DNA of 64,000 bases from Desulfonatronospira thiodismutans ASO3-1 (GTDB lineage: Bacteria; Desulfobacterota; Desulfovibrionia; Desulfovibrionales; Desulfonatronovibrionaceae), in NCBI RefSeq assembly GCF_000174435.1, contig NZ_ACJN02000001.1, positions 609,658 through 673,657 on the forward strand, written 5' to 3'. The translations under genes were made by a program, and so were the position numbers. This document shows positions 49,572 to 57,235 of the stretch, one piece after another; the first letter of the stretch is position 1; every line of letters starts with the position of its first letter. A model generated the notes under the pieces. That model was not told the origin of the DNA, searched no databases, and saw only the letters and a program-made list of their open reading frames with translations.

Positions 49572-51434
49572 TCAGGTCAGCAGGCGCAGGCTGTATTTAT
49601 TGCTCAATAATGACTGAAATTCCATGACCACCTTGAAACAGTCCTTTAATCTGTCCCGTTCCATGATCGAAAGTCTGTCCGGGGATATGAAATTATCAGG
49701 TATTGCCTGGCTATTAATTTGTTGGGCCTGGGTCCTGACCCTTAGGGTCTGAAGGAACTCAAAAGACTGCCTGAGACCTGCGGCAAAACCTGTTGAGAAT
49801 ACGCCCTGTTCATGCAAACGGGAGATTCGTTCTTCCGTGGGTGTTTCCAGGACTGCATGCTCCACTGCAAGAGTTCTGATTCCGTGGGTCAGGGGGAAAA
49901 CACCTCCCATCTTTATGTCCAGCCTGCCCTTGTTCCTACCGCTTTTATCCACCACCAGCTTGTTGAAAAACCCCAGTGGAGGCTTAAAACGCACGGCTTC
50001 ATGGGCCATGTATTTCAACAGCAGATTGCTTCTGCGGATCCGCTTGAACAGATAGGACTTGAGCATTCCGGCCAGGGTGCCGTCCCCGGCTACATGGCGC
50101 ATATCCAGCAACAGGGAGGTAACAATGATGCTGTTCATGTCCGCAGACTGGGCCATGTCGTCAACCAGATCCAGGGCCTGGTCAATGCTCATGCGCCATT
50201 TGGAGTTGCTCAGCATGACTTCATGGGGACATGCAGGAAAGCCAAGATCAAGCAGAGCTCCAATGAATTTTGAAGAAAAATCCTCAAAGAAAGACAACTG
50301 GGTTTTCCCGGAAGCCTCGGAATAAATAAGGGCATTGTCCTGGTCCGTGGCCAGATACTGTTCCCTGCGGCCTTCACTTCCCAGGGCCAGAATGCAGAAT
50401 GAAGCGGGGGCAGGCTGTTCCATTTCAGCCAGGATCAGATCATGGACACGGACCTGGATCTGATGGTGCATTTCACTGATCAAACGTCCCAGTTGAAAAA
50501 CACCCACTCCTTCGGCCACCGAGCGCAGGACCATGTTCCGGACCTGTTGAAACACTCTTTTCAGTTCCGAAAAATCTCCGGCCCGAACTATCTCTCTGGA
50601 CAGGTAGACAGGGTTCTCCCCTTTCACCGAAAGCAGATCCCTTTCCTCGATAATCCCCCTGGGGTCTGTCCCGCTGTCCTGGACCACCAATCTGTGGATT
50701 CCCCGGGAAACCATTCTGGAAAAAGCCTGAAAAAGCAGTTCATGCGATGCCACGGTAATCAACGGAGAAGACATTACCCCTTCTACCGTAATACTCCCGG
50801 GATCCAGGTCCCGGGCCACCACCTTTTTCAATATGTCCTGCTGGGTGACTATCCCCAGGAACTTACCTTCCTGTCTGACCAGGCAGGCCGTAGTCCCTTC
50901 CTGCAACATGATTCTGGCGGCCAGAGACACAGATGTGTCCATCTGCACAGTTACGGGAGCCTTTACTGATACATCCTGCAGGGTCAGGCACATATAGGGA
51001 TCCATGCGGGAAAAGCTTCGCCATTGCCGGATATCCTGAATCCTGTTTCGTAAGATCCCGGCTTTGCTTTGAAAAAAACTGTTCATCCGGTCATGGCCAA
51101 GAAAGAGCCTGAAGTCGTCTCCGCTTATGGCGCACAGGGTGCTCTCCCGGATGGCTATTGCAGCCTGGCCCTGGGGGGGTAAGAAAAAAAACGACTCGTA
51201 ACCGAAAAACTCTCCGGAAACCAGGGTGTCCACGACTTCGTTGTCGGACAGGATCTGCATAACGCCGTCCAGAATGAGATAGAGATAGTCGTGGTCCTTT
51301 TGATCCAGAAGGATCATCTCGCCAGGTGAAACTTCTTTCCGGCCTGCACGGGCTCCGGCCTTTTTAAGTTCTTCAGCCGAGAGGCCGGACAGAGGATGGA
51401 CTCCGGCCAGAAAATCGGCAATCTCGCTGCTCAT
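49572..51434 (-). CDS. cNMP-binding / CBS / DUF294 nucleotidyltransferase protein
   Basis: A 620-residue paralogue, in architecture, of the protein at 30554-32491. It has a cyclic-nucleotide-binding-like domain (about 10-130), two CBS domains (about 160-285), a nucleotidyltransferase core with [20 protein letters not shown] (about 357-376, metal-binding TDQDNA), and the DUF294 C-terminal domain. Its ATG overlaps the actP stop by four bases, so it is translationally coupled to the permease. The likely role is control of acetate uptake; target and nucleotide are unknown. Confidence 0.88.
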
Positions 51435-52981
51435 TCAGATCCAACACCCAGGTAGTTCCTTATTTTCTGTTCGTCGTATCTGCTTGAAGCTTCTGCATCA
51501 GGCCTCAGCCTGGAGCCTATGTATCCGGCTGCAAAAGCTCCGGCTACGGAGATGATGGCCGGATTGGACAGGGGGAAAATGGCCGTGGGATTGCGCAGGA
51601 GGTCAACCCAGACCGTGGGACTGAGGACAATCAGGCCTACTGCCAGTGTCGTGCCCGTGGCAATGCTTGCAACCGCTCCGAACGTGGAATAGTTTCTCCA
51701 GAGAATGGACAGGACCAGGGCGGGAAAATTGGCGCTGGCAGCCACGGCAAAGGCCAGACCTACCATGAAGGCCACATTCTGTCCCTGAAAGATGAGCCCA
51801 AGTACAATGGCCAGGACTCCCATGGATAAAGTGGCGATCCTGGCCACCTTGACCTCTTCTTCTTCGGTGGAACGCCCGGCTCGGAACACTCCTGCATAGA
51901 GGTCATGAGACAGGGTGCTGGCACCGGCCAGGGTCAGGCCGGCCACCACCGCCAGGATTGTGGCGAAGGCCACGGCGGCCATGAAACCTAGAAATACCGC
52001 CCCTCCTGTGGCCTCAGCCAGAAGCATGGCAGCCATGTTGCCTCCGGAGTCAATGGCCGAAATAATATCCTGACCTACAATGACCATTGCTCCAAAACCG
52101 ATGGTAAAGGTCAGAATGTAGAAAAAGCCAATGAATCCAGTGGCATAAAAAACGGATTTTCGGGCTGTCTTGGCGTCGCGCACAGTATAGAAGCGCATGA
52201 GTATGTGCGGCAGGCCGGCTGTTCCAAACATGAGGGCGATGCCCAGGGATACAGCGTCCATGGGACTGGCCACCAGCCCGCCGGGCTCCAGCACCCTGTC
52301 TCCGTAGCTCATGGCTGCCTGGCTGAACAGTTCACCATAGCTGAATCCGAAATGCAGCATGATCAGGAAGACCAGGATGGAGCCCCCGCTCAAAAGCAGC
52401 ACCGCCTTGATGATCTGTACCCAGGTGGTGGCCAGCATCCCTCCGAAGAGCACGTACATGATCATGACCATGCCTACGATCACCACAGCTATCTCATAGG
52501 GCATTCCGAAAATCATCATGATCAGGGTCCCTGCTCCCACCATCTGGGCGATGAGGTAAAAGAACACAGTCATAAGAGAACCCACAGAGGCAGCAATGCG
52601 GATGGGCTTTTTGGAGAGACGGTAGGCCAGCACATCCACAAAGGTGAATTTCCCGAGATTGCGCAGGGGTTCGGCAATGAGAAACATAAGGATTGGCCAT
52701 CCCACCAGAAAGCCGATGGAATAGATGAGCCCGTCGAAGCCACGCAGGGAGACAAGTCCGGCGATACCCAGAAAAGAGGCAGCGCTCATGTAGTCCCCGG
52801 AAAGGGCCAGACCGTTCTGCAGACCGGTTACCCCCCGGCCTGCGGCGTAAAACTGGGAAGCAGACTGGCTTTTTTTGGCTGCATAATAGGTAATGCCCAG
52901 TGTAGCACAGATAAAGACCAGGAAAAACAGGATGGAGGTGGTGCTTGGTTCTCCTATGGCTGTATCCACTACTTCCATCAC
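51431..52981 (-). CDS. actP: Cation/acetate symporter ActP
   Basis: A 516-residue sodium:solute symporter of the ActP type, importing acetate and similar short acids. About 13 hydrophobic helices are seen. Diagnostic segments are [20 protein letters not shown] (about 41-60), [37 protein letters not shown] and [17 protein letters not shown]. It lies in a tight three-gene operon DUF485-actP-nucleotidyltransferase with 4-bp overlaps at both junctions, the yjcH-actP order of E. coli. An acetyl-CoA synthetase gene is not present. Confidence 0.93.
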
Positions 52982-53286
52982 TTTCTCCTCATGCTTTGCA
53001 GGATTTCCTGGACAGATTTGTCATAATAAGAATTGGACCAGAAGACATAGATGCCGGTGAGAATAAAGGCCAGGACGATGACGAAAATGCCCACTGGAAT
53101 ACCCAGGGTCATATGTTCACCTATCTTCACGGACAGAAGATGGGGGGCATAGGCCAGAACCAGGATAAATCCGAAGTAGGCCAGCATCATTATGGCGGTC
53201 AGGCTCAGGGAGACCTTCCACCTGTTGACTACAAGCCTGCGGAATTTCTCTTTGTCCATGGAATCCGGAGAGGGAGGCGGCTGCAT
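52978..53286 (-). CDS. DUF485 membrane protein (YjcH-like)
   Basis: A 102-residue inner membrane protein with two transmembrane helices (about 28-50 and 63-85). It has the DUF485 pattern: [20 protein letters not shown]-like first helix, [19 protein letters not shown], and [10 protein letters not shown] at the end. It is the first gene of the actP operon and overlaps actP by four bases. DUF485 proteins accompany ActP and are presumed accessory subunits. A family A element is inserted just upstream and may affect its promoter. Confidence 0.9.
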
Positions 53287-53479: not shown

Positions 53480-53665
53480 CTTGGGATTATGGTGGGGGTA
53501 CAATCGGCTCGGTCAGAATAAATATAGAATTATTCGGAAAAAATATCAAGTACTGCCAGGTATCTGTTCAGGGCCAATTTATGCTCACAAAAAAATTCAA
53601 AAAATTTATAGAATTAACCCCAAATCCTGGACAAGTGCTCGAAAGTTTGTTACAAGGGGCTCGCC

Positions 53666-54739
53666 ATGCACACAAAGCCCCGTCCTTCATATTTGCTCAG
53701 CGTAAGGCTGCAACCAATCAAAAGGGAGCAGGAAAGCCTGTTCAAGTCTTTGATGGCCAAGTATCACTATCTTGGAGCCTCGCCTAAAATCAGCGAAACG
53801 CTCTGGTATGTCGCCACCTACTCTGATCAGTGGGTTGCCCTGCTTACATTCTCGGCTGCAGCCTTGAAATGCGCGGCCAGGGACCGTTGGATTGGATGGG
53901 AATATCGGCATCGGTTTGACCGCTTGAAGCTTCTGGCCAACAACACTCGTTTTCTTATTCTGCCGGGCTGGAATCTGCCAAACCTGGGATCTCGCATCCT
54001 ATCGCTTTGTGCAAAGCGCATCTCTTTTGATTGGCAACAACATTTTGGCCATCCACTGCTGCTCCTGGAAACCTTTGTCGATCCCAGACGTTACACAGGC
54101 ACTGTATACCGCGCCTCAAACTGGACAGAGCTTGGACTGACCAAAGGCTTTAAAAGAGTCGGCCAAGGATACAGTGCCAAACCTTCATCCCCCAAACTCA
54201 TCTTTGTCTTGCCGCTTCAAGCCAACGCCAGAAAACTGTTGTCTTGTGCCATTCTTAACGCAGCATATCAAAAAGGAGAACCCAAAATGACCATGAATGC
54301 TAAACAGATGGAATCACTCCCGGATTACTTCAAAACTGTCACCGACCCTCGAAGAACACATGGACGCCGTCATCGAATCTCTACAGTTCTGTCCATTGCA
54401 GCAGCAGCCACCCTGTGCGGAATGAAAGGCTACAAGGCCATTTATGGCTGGGCCAACAAACTGGGACAAAAGGCCCGGCAACGGTTTCGGTGCCGCAAGG
54501 AAAATGGAAAATATGTTATCCCCAGTCAGTTCGTCATACGTGATGTTCTAGTCCGTGCGGACCCAGTTGAATTAGATCTGGCTATGCAACGCTTTAACGA
54601 AGATCAAGGCCTCGAAGACACTTGTCTGGCTTTTGATGGCAAAACCATGAAAAACGCCATTGATGAAAATGCCCGGCAAACCCATATTGCCAGTGTTGTT
54701 GGCCATGAATCCAAGACCACCCACACCCAAAAAAAGTAG
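53666..54739 (+). CDS. DUF4338 (DruA-like) domain fused to ISAs1 transposase N-terminus
   Basis: A 357-residue product from ATG 53666, with AAGGGG about seven bases upstream. Residues 1-205 match the C-terminal core of DUF4338, the family of DruA from the Druantia anti-phage system: YLGASPKISETLWYVATY, CAARDRWIGW, NNTRFLILPGWNLPNLGSRI, HPLLLLETFVDPRRYTGTVY. Residues 208-357 are the ISAs1 N-terminal domain (DYFKTVTDPRRTHGRRHRIS) plus the first catalytic Asp in LAFDGKTMK (about 325). It stops at TAG 54737-54739 right after A AAA AAG. A -1 shift would give a 598-residue full fusion. DUF4338 biochemistry is not known. Confidence 0.8.
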   Translation: MHTKPRPSYLLSVRLQPIKREQESLFKSLMAKYHYLGASPKISETLWYVATYSDQWVALLTFSAAALKCAARDRWIGWEYRHRFDRLKLLANNTRFLILPGWNLPNLGSRILSLCAKRISFDWQQHFGHPLLLLETFVDPRRYTGTVYRASNWTELGLTKGFKRVGQGYSAKPSSPKLIFVLPLQANARKLLSCAILNAAYQKGEPKMTMNAKQMESLPDYFKTVTDPRRTHGRRHRISTVLSIAAAATLCGMKGYKAIYGWANKLGQKARQRFRCRKENGKYVIPSQFVIRDVLVRADPVELDLAMQRFNEDQGLEDTCLAFDGKTMKNAIDENARQTHIASVVGHESKTTHTQKK

Positions 54740-55461
54740 GTGCTCTGCCTGCAGAGGATGATGACCAAGAAACGAAGCAGACAAACGAAATCGGGATGTT
54801 TATCCCCATCCTGGAACAAATAGAAATCTCCGGGAAAACTATCACCGCCGACGCGCTTCTTACTCAGAAAAAACTGGCCGAATACATCGTTGGGCGCAAC
54901 GCAGCCTACCTTTTTACCGTCAAAAAAAACCAGCCCACTCTCTACTTCGACATCAAGAAATACTTTGAACACCGCAAAGAACCTGACTATTGCCTCCAAG
55001 ATCCACCAGGTCATGGCCGAATAGATACCCGCTCCATATGGACTACCACCGAGCTAAATGAATACCTTGAATTTCCCCATGTTGGCCAGGCGTTTTGCAT
55101 TCATAAAAAAAGCTATGACCCAAAAACCAATAAAGTCTGTGAAAACACTTTTTATGGCGTAACCAGCCACCATCCAAATAAGGCTGATCCGGCCAGAATA
55201 TTACAAATCCATCGTGGACATTGGAGTATTGAAAACAGCAAACATTATATCCTTGATTGGACTTATGACGAAGACAGAAACAGAATAAGAACCGGAAACG
55301 GCCCTGCAAATACAAATCGCTTGAGAGGTTTTGCCATAGGCTTGCTCAAGTCCAAAGGAGTTAAGGACATCGCTCAAAAAGTGAGAGACCTGCACCAACA
55401 AATCAGGCCCGTTCTGGACTATTTCAAGATGACAAAAAATTCTCAAAAACACAGAACATAA
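54287..55461 (+). CDS. ISAs1-family DDE transposase made by -1 frameshift
   Basis: ATG 54287 has its own strong ribosome binding site (AAAGGAG, eight bases upstream) and gives the normal ISAs1 start MTMNAKQMESLPDYFKTVTD. Reading shifts -1 at 54730-54736 and ends at 55461, giving about 391 residues, a usual ISAs1 length. Catalytic triad: Asp in LAFDGKTMK, Asp in ITADALLTQK, Glu in HWSIENSKHYILDW, followed by the family motif DEDRNRIRTGNGPANTNRLR. The ATG is in frame with the upstream DUF4338, so one gene can give a fused and a free form. If shifting does not occur, the element is a decayed IS. Confidence 0.75.
54730..54756 (+). promoter_or_regulatory. Programmed -1 frameshift signal: A AAA AAG plus hairpin
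   Basis: The heptamer A AAA AAG (54730-54736) is in the correct phase for a tandem -1 slip and is followed directly by the zero-frame stop TAG. Six bases after it begins a hairpin (CTCTG at 54743-54747, CAGAG at 54752-54756, 4-base loop). This is the same heptamer used by E. coli dnaX and several IS elements. Confidence 0.72.
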
Positions 55462-55485
55462 CAAAGGAGAACAAATTTGCCGTGG

Positions 55486-55607
55486 GTATCTGTTTAGCGC
55501 TTTGCATGTGGCATGGGGAATGGCTCTCCCCACACTTATTTTTTAAACCTGTCAATCTTCATAATAATAATTACTGGAGTGCCTGTCCCTGCTTTCCCTG
55601 TAAGGGT
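55486..55607. repeat. Family B element, right end lost, target of the IS
   Basis: It starts GTATCTGTTTAGCGCTTTGC and continues with CATGTGGCATGGGGAATGGC and GGAGTGCCTGTCCCTGC arms, but the right terminal repeat is missing after CTTTCCCTG. The first bases are shared with the IS target duplication; the left flank of the element continues at 53551-53558. Confidence 0.7.
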
Positions 55608-56021: not shown

Positions 56022-56645
56022 TCAAAGGACATCATTCTTCCAGAAAGGCTTTTTTCCATCGGGTTGTGGGACTGGAAAAGCGCACTTTCTCAGGGCGAAA
56101 CTCATGTCAGGATTATAGGGGTAATATTTTTTAAGATGCCCTTTCAGCCAGGCAACCATCTCTTGATGGTCTTCATGGTCTGGATCATTCAAGATATCCA
56201 GTAATTGATAATATCCGCGCACGCCCCCGCAATCCTCCGGCGGACAGGCCCTTTCGCCCCCTAAGCATTTAGGATATTTACTCCCTTTCTCTTTGACCAG
56301 CAGGCCTTCAAACAAGGCATCATGCATCCATCCATCTCCAAAATCGTATTCATATTCAAACCATTGTCCGGGCTGGTGCAAATAAGAATCAAGCTTTATG
56401 TCCCATCCAGGCAAAGTTTCCAGGTCATCCCACTTCTCAGATGGAATACCGATTTCTATGACATCCCGCTTATGTTTGGGACGGAATCTAAAAGCGTGCA
56501 GATGATAGTCCAGCCAGCCCATGGCATCCTGAATAGCAACGTGCAGCCCCCAGAAAGTGTAGGTATCAGGGACCTGAATTCTTCGCCATATGGGCGGTTC
56601 AATCTCTTGAAGCCTGATGTAGAACTGGTAAATCAATTGGCTCAT
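56022..56645 (-). CDS. Plasmid pRiA4b ORF-3 family protein
   Basis: A 207-residue protein of the PRiA4_ORF3 family (function unknown, common on plasmids and genomic islands). Seen: the family start YQFYIRLQEIEPPIWRRIQV, TFWGLHVAIQDAMGWLDYHL, FEYEYDFGDGWMHDALFE, and a Cys pair in ACPPEDCGGVRGYY. I chose ATG 56645 because GGAGGG lies a few bases upstream and the family begins here. The reading frame is open further upstream through a fused remnant of a four-helix-bundle gene. Confidence 0.86.
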   Translation of the reverse strand: MSQLIYQFYIRLQEIEPPIWRRIQVPDTYTFWGLHVAIQDAMGWLDYHLHAFRFRPKHKRDVIEIGIPSEKWDDLETLPGWDIKLDSYLHQPGQWFEYEYDFGDGWMHDALFEGLLVKEKGSKYPKCLGGERACPPEDCGGVRGYYQLLDILNDPDHEDHQEMVAWLKGHLKKYYPYNPDMSFALRKCAFPVPQPDGKKPFWKNDVL

Positions 56646-57235
56646 TACTGCCCTCCCCTTTTGTCTCTTGGATGGATACCTGAAAAGAACCTTTGCCTGG
56701 TTGCCGGCTGCATAATCCAGCATCCGGCCCAAGATTTCGTGCCTGATCCTGCTGTCCGAGCTGTGCTCGATCTCCACATAATCCAGGCGGAGTTCTTCCA
56801 GACTGGCCCTTGCCACGTTGGTCAGTTTCAGTTCGATCTTTTTGGACGTTCCACTGGCCTTACTGCCTTCCGCTATGTTTTGCACACCCGACCTGGCCGC
56901 CTGGATCATCTGTAACCATTCAGGAGGTCCTCGGTGGTGATTACTGGCACGAGGCTTGGGGACTGTCCCTCGCTAAGTACCGGCTGTGCTGGTACACAAA
57001 ACTTCGCGTCTGTAATTTTTGTAATTGTGCGTAAAAGGTGTCGCGGGGACTGTCCCCAGGCCGGTTCCGGCACCCCCTGAATGGTTACGATCATCTGATC
57101 CTTTGTCCTGCTGAACCGGTTAATGTAGCGGTCGCAGAATCGAACAGTTACATCATATACCAGCTGGGCCAGCTGAAAACTTTTGAGATTTCGATAACCG
57201 CCGTGCTTGGGTATGAGGGTTTCTCGCTGAGGCAA
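56646..57235 (-). pseudogene. Four-helix-bundle (S23-like) gene, split by a family A element
   Basis: The 5' part (TTG 57235 down to 57097) encodes HGGYRNLKSFQLAQLVYDVT and the 3' part encodes GVQNIAEGSKASGTSKKIEL then NVARASLEELRLDY, the four-helix-bundle family known from 23S rRNA intervening sequences. A family A element (56912-57088) with duplication GATCATCT lies between. Removing it and one duplicate restores the frame exactly (KDQMIQAARSG). After RLDY the sequence changes to VEIEHSSDSRIRHEILGRML, a piece from another gene, and runs in frame into the pRiA4b gene, so the gene was also chimeric. Confidence 0.85.
56912..57088. repeat. Family A element inserted in a coding gene, 177 bp
   Basis: Ends GTAACCATTCAGGAGG and CCTGAATGGTTAC, flanked by the exact 8-bp repeat GATCATCT (56904-56911 and 57089-57096). 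It disrupts the four-helix-bundle gene. It is the only copy in the window whose empty target can be rebuilt from protein sequence. Confidence 0.95.

What the first reader, a model, noticed from the sequence alone, without database searches (positions are those of the whole stretch)
53569..55484. Insertion sequence with a DruA-like (DUF4338) domain fused in frame to its transposase
One frame runs from a DUF4338 domain straight into the N-terminal domain of an ISAs1 DDE transposase. An internal ATG (54287) with its own strong ribosome binding site could release the transposase part alone. DUF4338 is the family of DruA in the Druantia anti-phage system, whose biochemistry is not known. Finding it inside an IS with matching ends and target duplication suggests a transposition-accessory role that may be the ancestral function.
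Basis: partly seen in the sequence, partly recalled or inferred. Interest (0 to 1): 0.75.

Follow-up and report, generated by a model that had tools for sequence, protein, structure and literature searches.

The report
Jumping gene fused to DNA-modifier-like enzyme
A small bacterial jumping gene has its transposase fused to a domain related to the anti-phage protein DruA; the domain is predicted to fold like a virus enzyme that chemically tags DNA, and the full transposase is made only if reading slips back one letter at a signal kept in dozens of distant relatives.

Summary
Window 53569-55484 is a 1,916-bp ISAs1-type insertion sequence with imperfect terminal repeats and an exact 10-bp target duplication. 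Its first ORF (357 aa) joins a DUF4338/DruA domain to the transposase N-terminal domain. But that frame stops before the catalytic core. The rest lies in the -1 frame, right after CA[A AAA AAG]TAG, a classic -1 slippery signal. The same signal, in the same place and frame, occurs in 41 of 44 non-redundant relatives from several phyla, and nearly identical copies in one Accumulibacter genome have transposed with it. So it is very probably a programmed frameshift, not decay. A ribosome-binding site plus in-frame start at the domain junction is also conserved (36/44). The DruA-ISAs1 fusions form one clade. DruA-like domains also sit beside or are fused to IS66, ISKra4, IS4/Tn5 and IS701 transposases. 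The predicted domain is a GNAT fold whose best solved match is phage Mu Mom, a DNA-adenine modifier. Best reading: the element carries its own Mom-like DNA-modifying domain, aimed at its ends by the transposase's DNA-binding domain. The enzyme activity is inferred. Whether the IS role is ancestral to Druantia stays open (unrooted tree).

The parts
53569..55484 (+). ISAs1-type insertion sequence (1,916 bp) carrying the DruA-transposase fusion
   Evidence: Repeat analysis and sequence; second full copy at 99% and partial copies in the same genome; TIR/TSD scan
53559..53568 (.). left target-site duplication GGTATCTGTT
55485..55494 (.). right target-site duplication GGTATCTGTT
53569..53586 (+). 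left terminal inverted repeat CAGGGCCAATTTATGCTC
   Evidence: 14/18 identical to the right end
55467..55484 (-). right terminal inverted repeat CACGGCAAATTTGTTCTC
53666..54739 (+). ORF1, 357 aa: DruA (DUF4338) domain + transposase N-terminal domain + first catalytic Asp; stops at TAG 54737-54739
   Evidence: AF2 model: GNAT domain, then helical domain aa 212-315; tail 316-357 mostly below pLDDT 50
53687..54250 (+). DUF4338/DruA domain, GNAT fold closest to phage Mu Mom (aa 8-195)
   Evidence: PF14236 96 bits; AF2 pLDDT 91.3; Foldseek/VIA best match 8bv8 Mom; weak Pfam Mom and PHROG Mom-like hits
54273..54278 (+). internal Shine-Dalgarno AAGGAG
   Evidence: Shine-Dalgarno plus in-frame start at the junction in 36 of 44 elements
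54287..54289 (+). internal in-frame start ATG (M208), where the transposase part begins
54730..54736 (+). -1 slippery heptamer A AAA AAG in the zero frame (CAA AAA AAG TAG)
   Evidence: 41 of 44 non-redundant elements
54743..54756 (+). candidate stimulatory hairpin CTCTG-CCTG-CAGAG, 6 nt after the slip site
   Evidence: modest; not universal
54736..55461 (+). ORF2 in the -1 frame: rest of the ISAs1 DDE catalytic domain; joined to ORF1 by frameshift gives 598 aa

Best explanation
This is a mobile ISAs1-type insertion sequence whose transposase carries an N-terminal Mom-like GNAT domain (the DruA/DUF4338 family), with output set by recoding. Normal translation gives a 357-aa protein: GNAT domain plus the transposase's N-terminal, presumably end-binding, domain, but no complete catalytic site. 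A -1 ribosomal slip on A AAA AAG gives the 598-aa complete transposase, probably as the minor product. A conserved internal start at the domain junction can give the same pair without the GNAT domain. The most likely role of the 357-aa product is to bring an acyl-CoA-dependent base-modifying activity (Mom modifies adenine) to the element's own ends or copies, protecting or marking them and so tuning transposition. Shown by sequence: the IS, its recent mobility, the fusion, the conserved slip site and internal start, purifying selection, and a confidently predicted Mom-like fold. Inferred: that the shift is ribosomal, that the N-terminal transposase domain binds the ends, that the domain modifies DNA, and the purpose.
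For: Mobility: 10-bp duplications at several sites in this genome; 13 intact copies in Accumulibacter ACC003 with target duplications (one imperfect); Methylotuvimicrobium x2 and others. Frameshift: heptamer in frame in 41/44 non-redundant elements, P about 2e-25 under free Lys codon choice (elements are related, so a rough figure), down to 52% identity; a 71%-identical complete element keeps it. Internal start: 36/44 against 25/829. Fusion in frame across lineages; ISAs1 fusions form one clade. Fold: AF2 pLDDT 91.3; best PDB match Mu Mom 8bv8, Foldseek E 9.2e-9, VIA Z 15.5 over 172 residues (rmsd 3.8) against 13.2 for the next; 16/25 members hit Pfam Mom, the only other Pfam family hit (best 5.2e-7); PHROG 'Mom-like DNA modification protein' 1.2e-6 for L040 and 0.0014 for the window. 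Invariant polar residues H34, R72, N93, R95, E135, T136, Y148, K177 across all IS types look enzymatic. Selection: dN/dS about 0.1 on the DruA part.
Against: No experiment. Mom similarity in sequence is below Pfam's cut-off (17.1 against 27.1 bits for the window; 27.0 for L040). Many GNATs match the fold at Z 12-13, and a shared fold does not fix the substrate. The hairpin after the slip site is not universal. The GNAT domain could be non-catalytic. L010 and L165 are unbroken single-frame fusions, so frameshifting is not essential to the fused design.
Confidence: 0.5

Rival explanations
1. The frameshift is decay or an assembly error in a dying element.
For: ORF1 ends in TAG straight after a homopolymer run, a typical error site.
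Against: Same run, position and -1 direction in 41/44 lineages; nearly identical ACC003 copies carry it (all but one, L160) and have transposed; purifying selection downstream of the shift.
Confidence: 0.02
2. The GNAT domain acts on a protein or small molecule (for example acetylating the transposase, a host DNA-binding protein or a polyamine) and not on DNA.
For: Most GNATs do this (general knowledge); protein and polyamine acetyltransferases match the model at Z 12-13.
Against: Mom is the best match by structure and the only other family hit by profile; fusion to or pairing with DNA-acting transposases of several unrelated families suggests a DNA substrate.
Confidence: 0.22
3. The DruA domain is a non-catalytic DNA-binding or target-choosing module of the transposase.
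For: Fused to or next to many transposases; target choice often depends on extra transposase domains (general knowledge).
Against: The conserved polar set H, R, N, R, E, T, Y, K is more than a scaffold needs; Mom is an enzyme.
Confidence: 0.2
4. The IS carries DruA as anti-phage cargo for its host.
For: DruA names a Druantia subunit; defence DruA exists elsewhere, e.g. in an operon with a DEAD/DEAH helicase on a Nitrosococcus plasmid.
Against: No other Druantia gene in the element; own genome lacks a strong DruA1 match (best E 7.8e-6); it is fused to the transposase; IS-borne and Druantia DruA separate at support 100.
Confidence: 0.05
5. The shift comes from transcriptional slippage on A7, not from the ribosome; the rest of the explanation stands.
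For: A run of A can slip at some rate in transcription (general knowledge).
Against: The conserved feature is the ribosomal heptamer A AAA AAG in fixed phase, and A7 is short for transcriptional slippage (general knowledge).
Confidence: 0.15

Closest known systems
ISAs1 family of insertion sequences (NCBIfam NF033564)
   Same: DDE transposase, TIRs starting CA(G/C)GG, 10-bp target duplications
   Different: Extra N-terminal DruA/GNAT domain, and transposase split by a frameshift; DruA-free ISAs1 such as L217, L024 and L025 read in one frame
IS3 / IS1 elements with programmed -1 frameshifting
   Same: A slip site gives a minor full transposase and a major truncated product (general knowledge; PMC3281130 reports such motifs in subgroups of IS3 and IS5)
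   Different: Different transposase family; the shift falls inside the catalytic fold between the first and second Asp; the truncated product carries a GNAT domain
Druantia DruA (PF14236; PADLOC DruA1)
   Same: Same Pfam family, 96-99 bits against cut-off 27
   Different: No Druantia partner genes, Pfam match starts only at profile position 50, separate group by a long branch, very weak PADLOC match (E 0.06)
Phage Mu Mom DNA modification enzyme (8bv8, PF25680)
   Same: Best structural match; similar motif ETFVD..G.VYKAANW ~ QSFADERC..GVVYQASNF (itself not significant); Mu, which carries mom, also moves by a DDE transposase (general knowledge)
   Different: 18% identity; below Pfam cut-off; substrate untested; fused to the transposase

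Membership tests
ISAs1 family | transposase matches NF033564 above cut-off | tested here: met
   135.4 bits, cut-off 70, for the -1-frame part
ISAs1 family | terminal inverted repeats and 8-10 bp target duplication | tested here: met
ISAs1 family | single uninterrupted transposase ORF (usual, not defining) | tested here: not met
   -1 shift at 54730-54736
programmed -1 frameshifting | slippery heptamer X XXY YYZ in the zero frame with overlapping -1 ORF | tested here: met
   A AAA AAG
programmed -1 frameshifting | conserved downstream stimulatory structure | tested here: inconclusive
   hairpins stronger than shuffles on average (p 8e-4) but absent in some
programmed -1 frameshifting | measured frameshift product | not testable with these tools
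   needs reporter or mass spectrometry
DruA / DUF4338 (PF14236) | profile match above gathering score | tested here: met
   98.8 bits for the domain alone
Druantia defence system | neighbouring Druantia genes (DruE helicase and others) | tested here: not met
   element holds only the fusion; own genome has no strong DruA1
Mom family | GNAT fold closest to Mom | tested here: met
Mom family | Pfam PF25680 above gathering score | tested here: not met
   17.1 bits for the window, 27.0 for L040, cut-off 27.1
Mom family | DNA adenine modification | not testable with these tools
   needs LC-MS of DNA

The most novel reading that the evidence does not exclude
DruA/DUF4338 is a family of Mom-like DNA-modifying enzymes repeatedly taken up by insertion sequences of at least five transposase families (ISAs1, IS4/Tn5, IS701, IS66, ISKra4), which chemically mark their own DNA; Druantia DruA would then be a DNA-modifying subunit too.
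Probability: 0.3. Interest if true: 0.88.

Novelty: new variant of a known kind. Interest (0 to 1): 0.72.

Why it matters
It gives a testable biochemical hypothesis for DruA, a defence protein listed as of unknown function, through a small autonomous IS. It shows a recurrent partnership between a Mom-like GNAT domain and unrelated transposases that I found in no paper of the open library searched. It adds conserved frameshifting to an IS family where I found no earlier report (one search). And it warns that proteins named 'Druantia DruA' by PF14236 alone may often be IS genes: in one phylum, 49 of 395 sampled genomes matched the fusion profile (mostly in the DruA part), while 5 of 247 had a strong DruA1 match.

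Tried and rejected
A single-sequence scan of genome contigs found nothing; the alignment A1 then gave 533 relatives, 80 kept. Profile searches of solved structures by sequence alone found no significant relative; Mom appeared only at E 0.43 with L040, so the Mom link rests on structure plus Pfam/PHROG profiles. A universal hairpin after the slip site was looked for and not found. Decay or assembly error was rejected. 'Ancestral IS function' could not be tested: no outgroup roots the DruA tree. Plasmid records hold few relatives. Open-library searches on DUF4338/DruA with transposase, ISAs1, IS66 or family terms gave no paper on IS-borne DruA; subscription papers are not covered. The papers on Mom's active site that I tried are not held, so I claim no mapping of Mom's catalytic residues. 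VIA-align only re-ranks Foldseek's list, so other folds are not excluded by it.

Full report
What is there. ORF1 runs 53666-54739 (357 aa). It matches PF14236 DruA at aa 13-162 (E 2.5e-27) and DDE_Tnp_1_assoc at aa 220-310. The NCBIfam ISAs1 model matches its end weakly and the following -1 frame strongly (38 and 135 bits; cut-off 70). The element spans 53569-55484, with TIRs 14/18 identical and a perfect 10-bp duplication GGTATCTGTT. The same genome holds a second full copy (99%) with its own duplication CCCCTTGCCC, and a third, split copy with GAGCTAAGGC. Seventeen substitutions between the two full copies leave both ORFs open.

The correction. ORF1 ends ...CAA AAA AAG TAG. The catalytic domain continues in the -1 frame, so a full transposase needs a -1 shift on A AAA AAG at 54730-54736. 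L086/L101 (the same Desulfonatronum contig, fetched twice; 71% nucleotide identity end to end) keeps the heptamer, phase and break. In 44 non-redundant related elements, 41 have AAA AAG in the zero frame at that point. Lys codons elsewhere in these ORFs are 52% AAA, so free choice would give this with probability about 2e-25 (the elements are related, so this is only a guide). Hosts named in the record titles include Desulfobacterota, Beta- and Gammaproteobacteria, Nitrospira, Acidobacteria and Chlorobi (many are metagenome bins). A hairpin often follows, stronger on average than in shuffles (p 8e-4) but not everywhere.

The unit moves as such. In Candidatus Accumulibacter ACC003 thirteen intact copies of about 1,908 bp, 99-100% identical, are flanked by 9-10-bp repeats (one repeat is imperfect). 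One of these copies (L160) has lost an A and is fused in frame. A scan found TIRs plus matching duplications in 29 loci, including Methylotuvimicrobium buryatense (2), Desulfoferrobacter, Acidithiobacillus marinus (3) and Thiodictyon plasmids (2).

Internal start. The ATG at 54287 with AAGGAG upstream is where the transposase part begins. Among 44 elements, 36 have a Shine-Dalgarno plus in-frame start in that 16-codon window, against 25 of 829 other windows of the same ORFs. So both fused and free transposase products are probably made. DruA and transposase parts are both under purifying selection (dN 0.17/dS 1.65 for the DruA part, dN 0.23/dS 3.2 for ORF2; dS is near saturation).

A second solution. 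Other DruA-ISAs1 fusions ('clade B' here for convenience, not shown to be one clade: Firmicutes, Acidithiobacillus, Thiodictyon, Myxococcota, Acidobacteria) lack the A AAA AAG site. Many instead break by +1 further on, at TTT TCC CCC TGA, TTT CCC CCC TGA/TCA or TTT CCC CCT CA(A/G), reminiscent of known +1 sites (general knowledge). Three A. marinus copies and two Thiodictyon copies with target duplications carry it. L010 and L165 are unbroken single-frame fusions. All ISAs1 fusions sampled, plus one viral-contig sequence, form one clade (support 99), and the -1 group is one clade within it (98).

A wider pattern. HMM scans show PF14236 fused in one frame to an IS4/Tn5-type transposase (760 aa, L082; more copies in this genome) and to an IS701 transposase (663 aa, L040). 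DruA-like ORFs also sit directly upstream of IS66 (L051, L094, L012, L038) and ISKra4 (L085, L093, L091) transposases. In the DruA tree the IS66- and ISKra4-linked rows do not form single groups, though exchange between transposase types is not forced by the strong branches.

What the domain is. AlphaFold2 with 65 family members gives pLDDT 91.3. Foldseek's best PDB match is phage Mu Mom 8bv8 (E 9.2e-9); VIA-align gives Mom Z 15.5 over 172 residues (rmsd 3.8, 18% identity), the next GNAT 13.2. By sequence profile, 16 of 25 members hit Pfam Mom, the only Pfam family hit besides DruA (best 5.2e-7), and PHROG 1384 'Mom-like DNA modification protein' hits L040 at 1.2e-6 and the window at 0.0014. 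The window alone is below Pfam's cut-off, so this is a relationship, not membership. PMC10853773 had already called DUF4338 a GNAT domain; PMC7824862 describes Mom as an acyltransferase on adenine N6. In the ORF1 model the GNAT domain and a helical transposase domain (212-315) fold, and the truncated catalytic strand (316-357) has mostly very low confidence, as expected of a product whose DDE fold is cut.

How it probably works. The zero-frame protein couples a Mom-like GNAT domain to the transposase N-terminal part; the shifted protein adds catalysis. The simplest purpose is to bring base modification to the IS ends or to fresh copies, protecting or marking them, as host Dam methylation regulates IS10/IS50 and Mom protects Mu (general knowledge). 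Steps shown: element, mobility, fusion, slip conservation, internal start, selection, predicted fold. Steps inferred: ribosomal mechanism, end binding, DNA as substrate, purpose.

Druantia. Defence-type DruA (for example Nitrosococcus pNWAT01, in an operon with a DEAD/DEAH helicase; HerA/NurA-like neighbours in L214-L216, judged by eye) splits from IS-borne DruA with support 100 and a branch of over 2 changes per site. The direction of descent is open.

Noticed in passing
L167, L171, L172, L166, L173, L174, L169, L176-L179, L047, L099 (about 20 codons after VKDNQ): A second, different recoding site in DruA-ISAs1 relatives: +1 shift at TTT TCC CCC TGA and similar C-runs, carried by some copies with intact target duplications.
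   Followed up: partly
L082, L083, L084 (own genome C2:390871, C3:522043, C3:186803): A 760-aa in-frame fusion of a fuller DruA to an IS4/Tn5-type transposase in two nearly identical copies; a third copy is frame-broken.
   Followed up: partly
L040, L189, L190, L196: DruA fused in one frame to IS701 transposases in several genomes.
   Followed up: partly
L038, L039, L048, L096, L097 (own genome): A 3.5-kb element with DruA directly upstream of an IS66 transposase in several copies; one appears to be inserted inside a DruA-ISAs1 copy (L004/L005), splitting it.
   Followed up: partly
L160 (Accumulibacter ACC003): One copy has A6 instead of A7, which fuses the two ORFs in frame: a natural constitutive-transposase variant.
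   Followed up: no
L201-L205 (viral contigs): DruA-like proteins in viral contigs; L202 and L204 group with Druantia DruA, L201 with IS-borne ones on a long branch.
   Followed up: partly
L214, L215, L216: Defence-type DruA genes next to what look by eye like NurA/HerA-type genes and not the classical Druantia set.
   Followed up: no
window 56022-56909 and 51431-53286: By eye only: the IS sits between an ORF that looks like a plasmid pRiA4b ORF-3 type protein and an acetate-permease-like operon.
   Followed up: no
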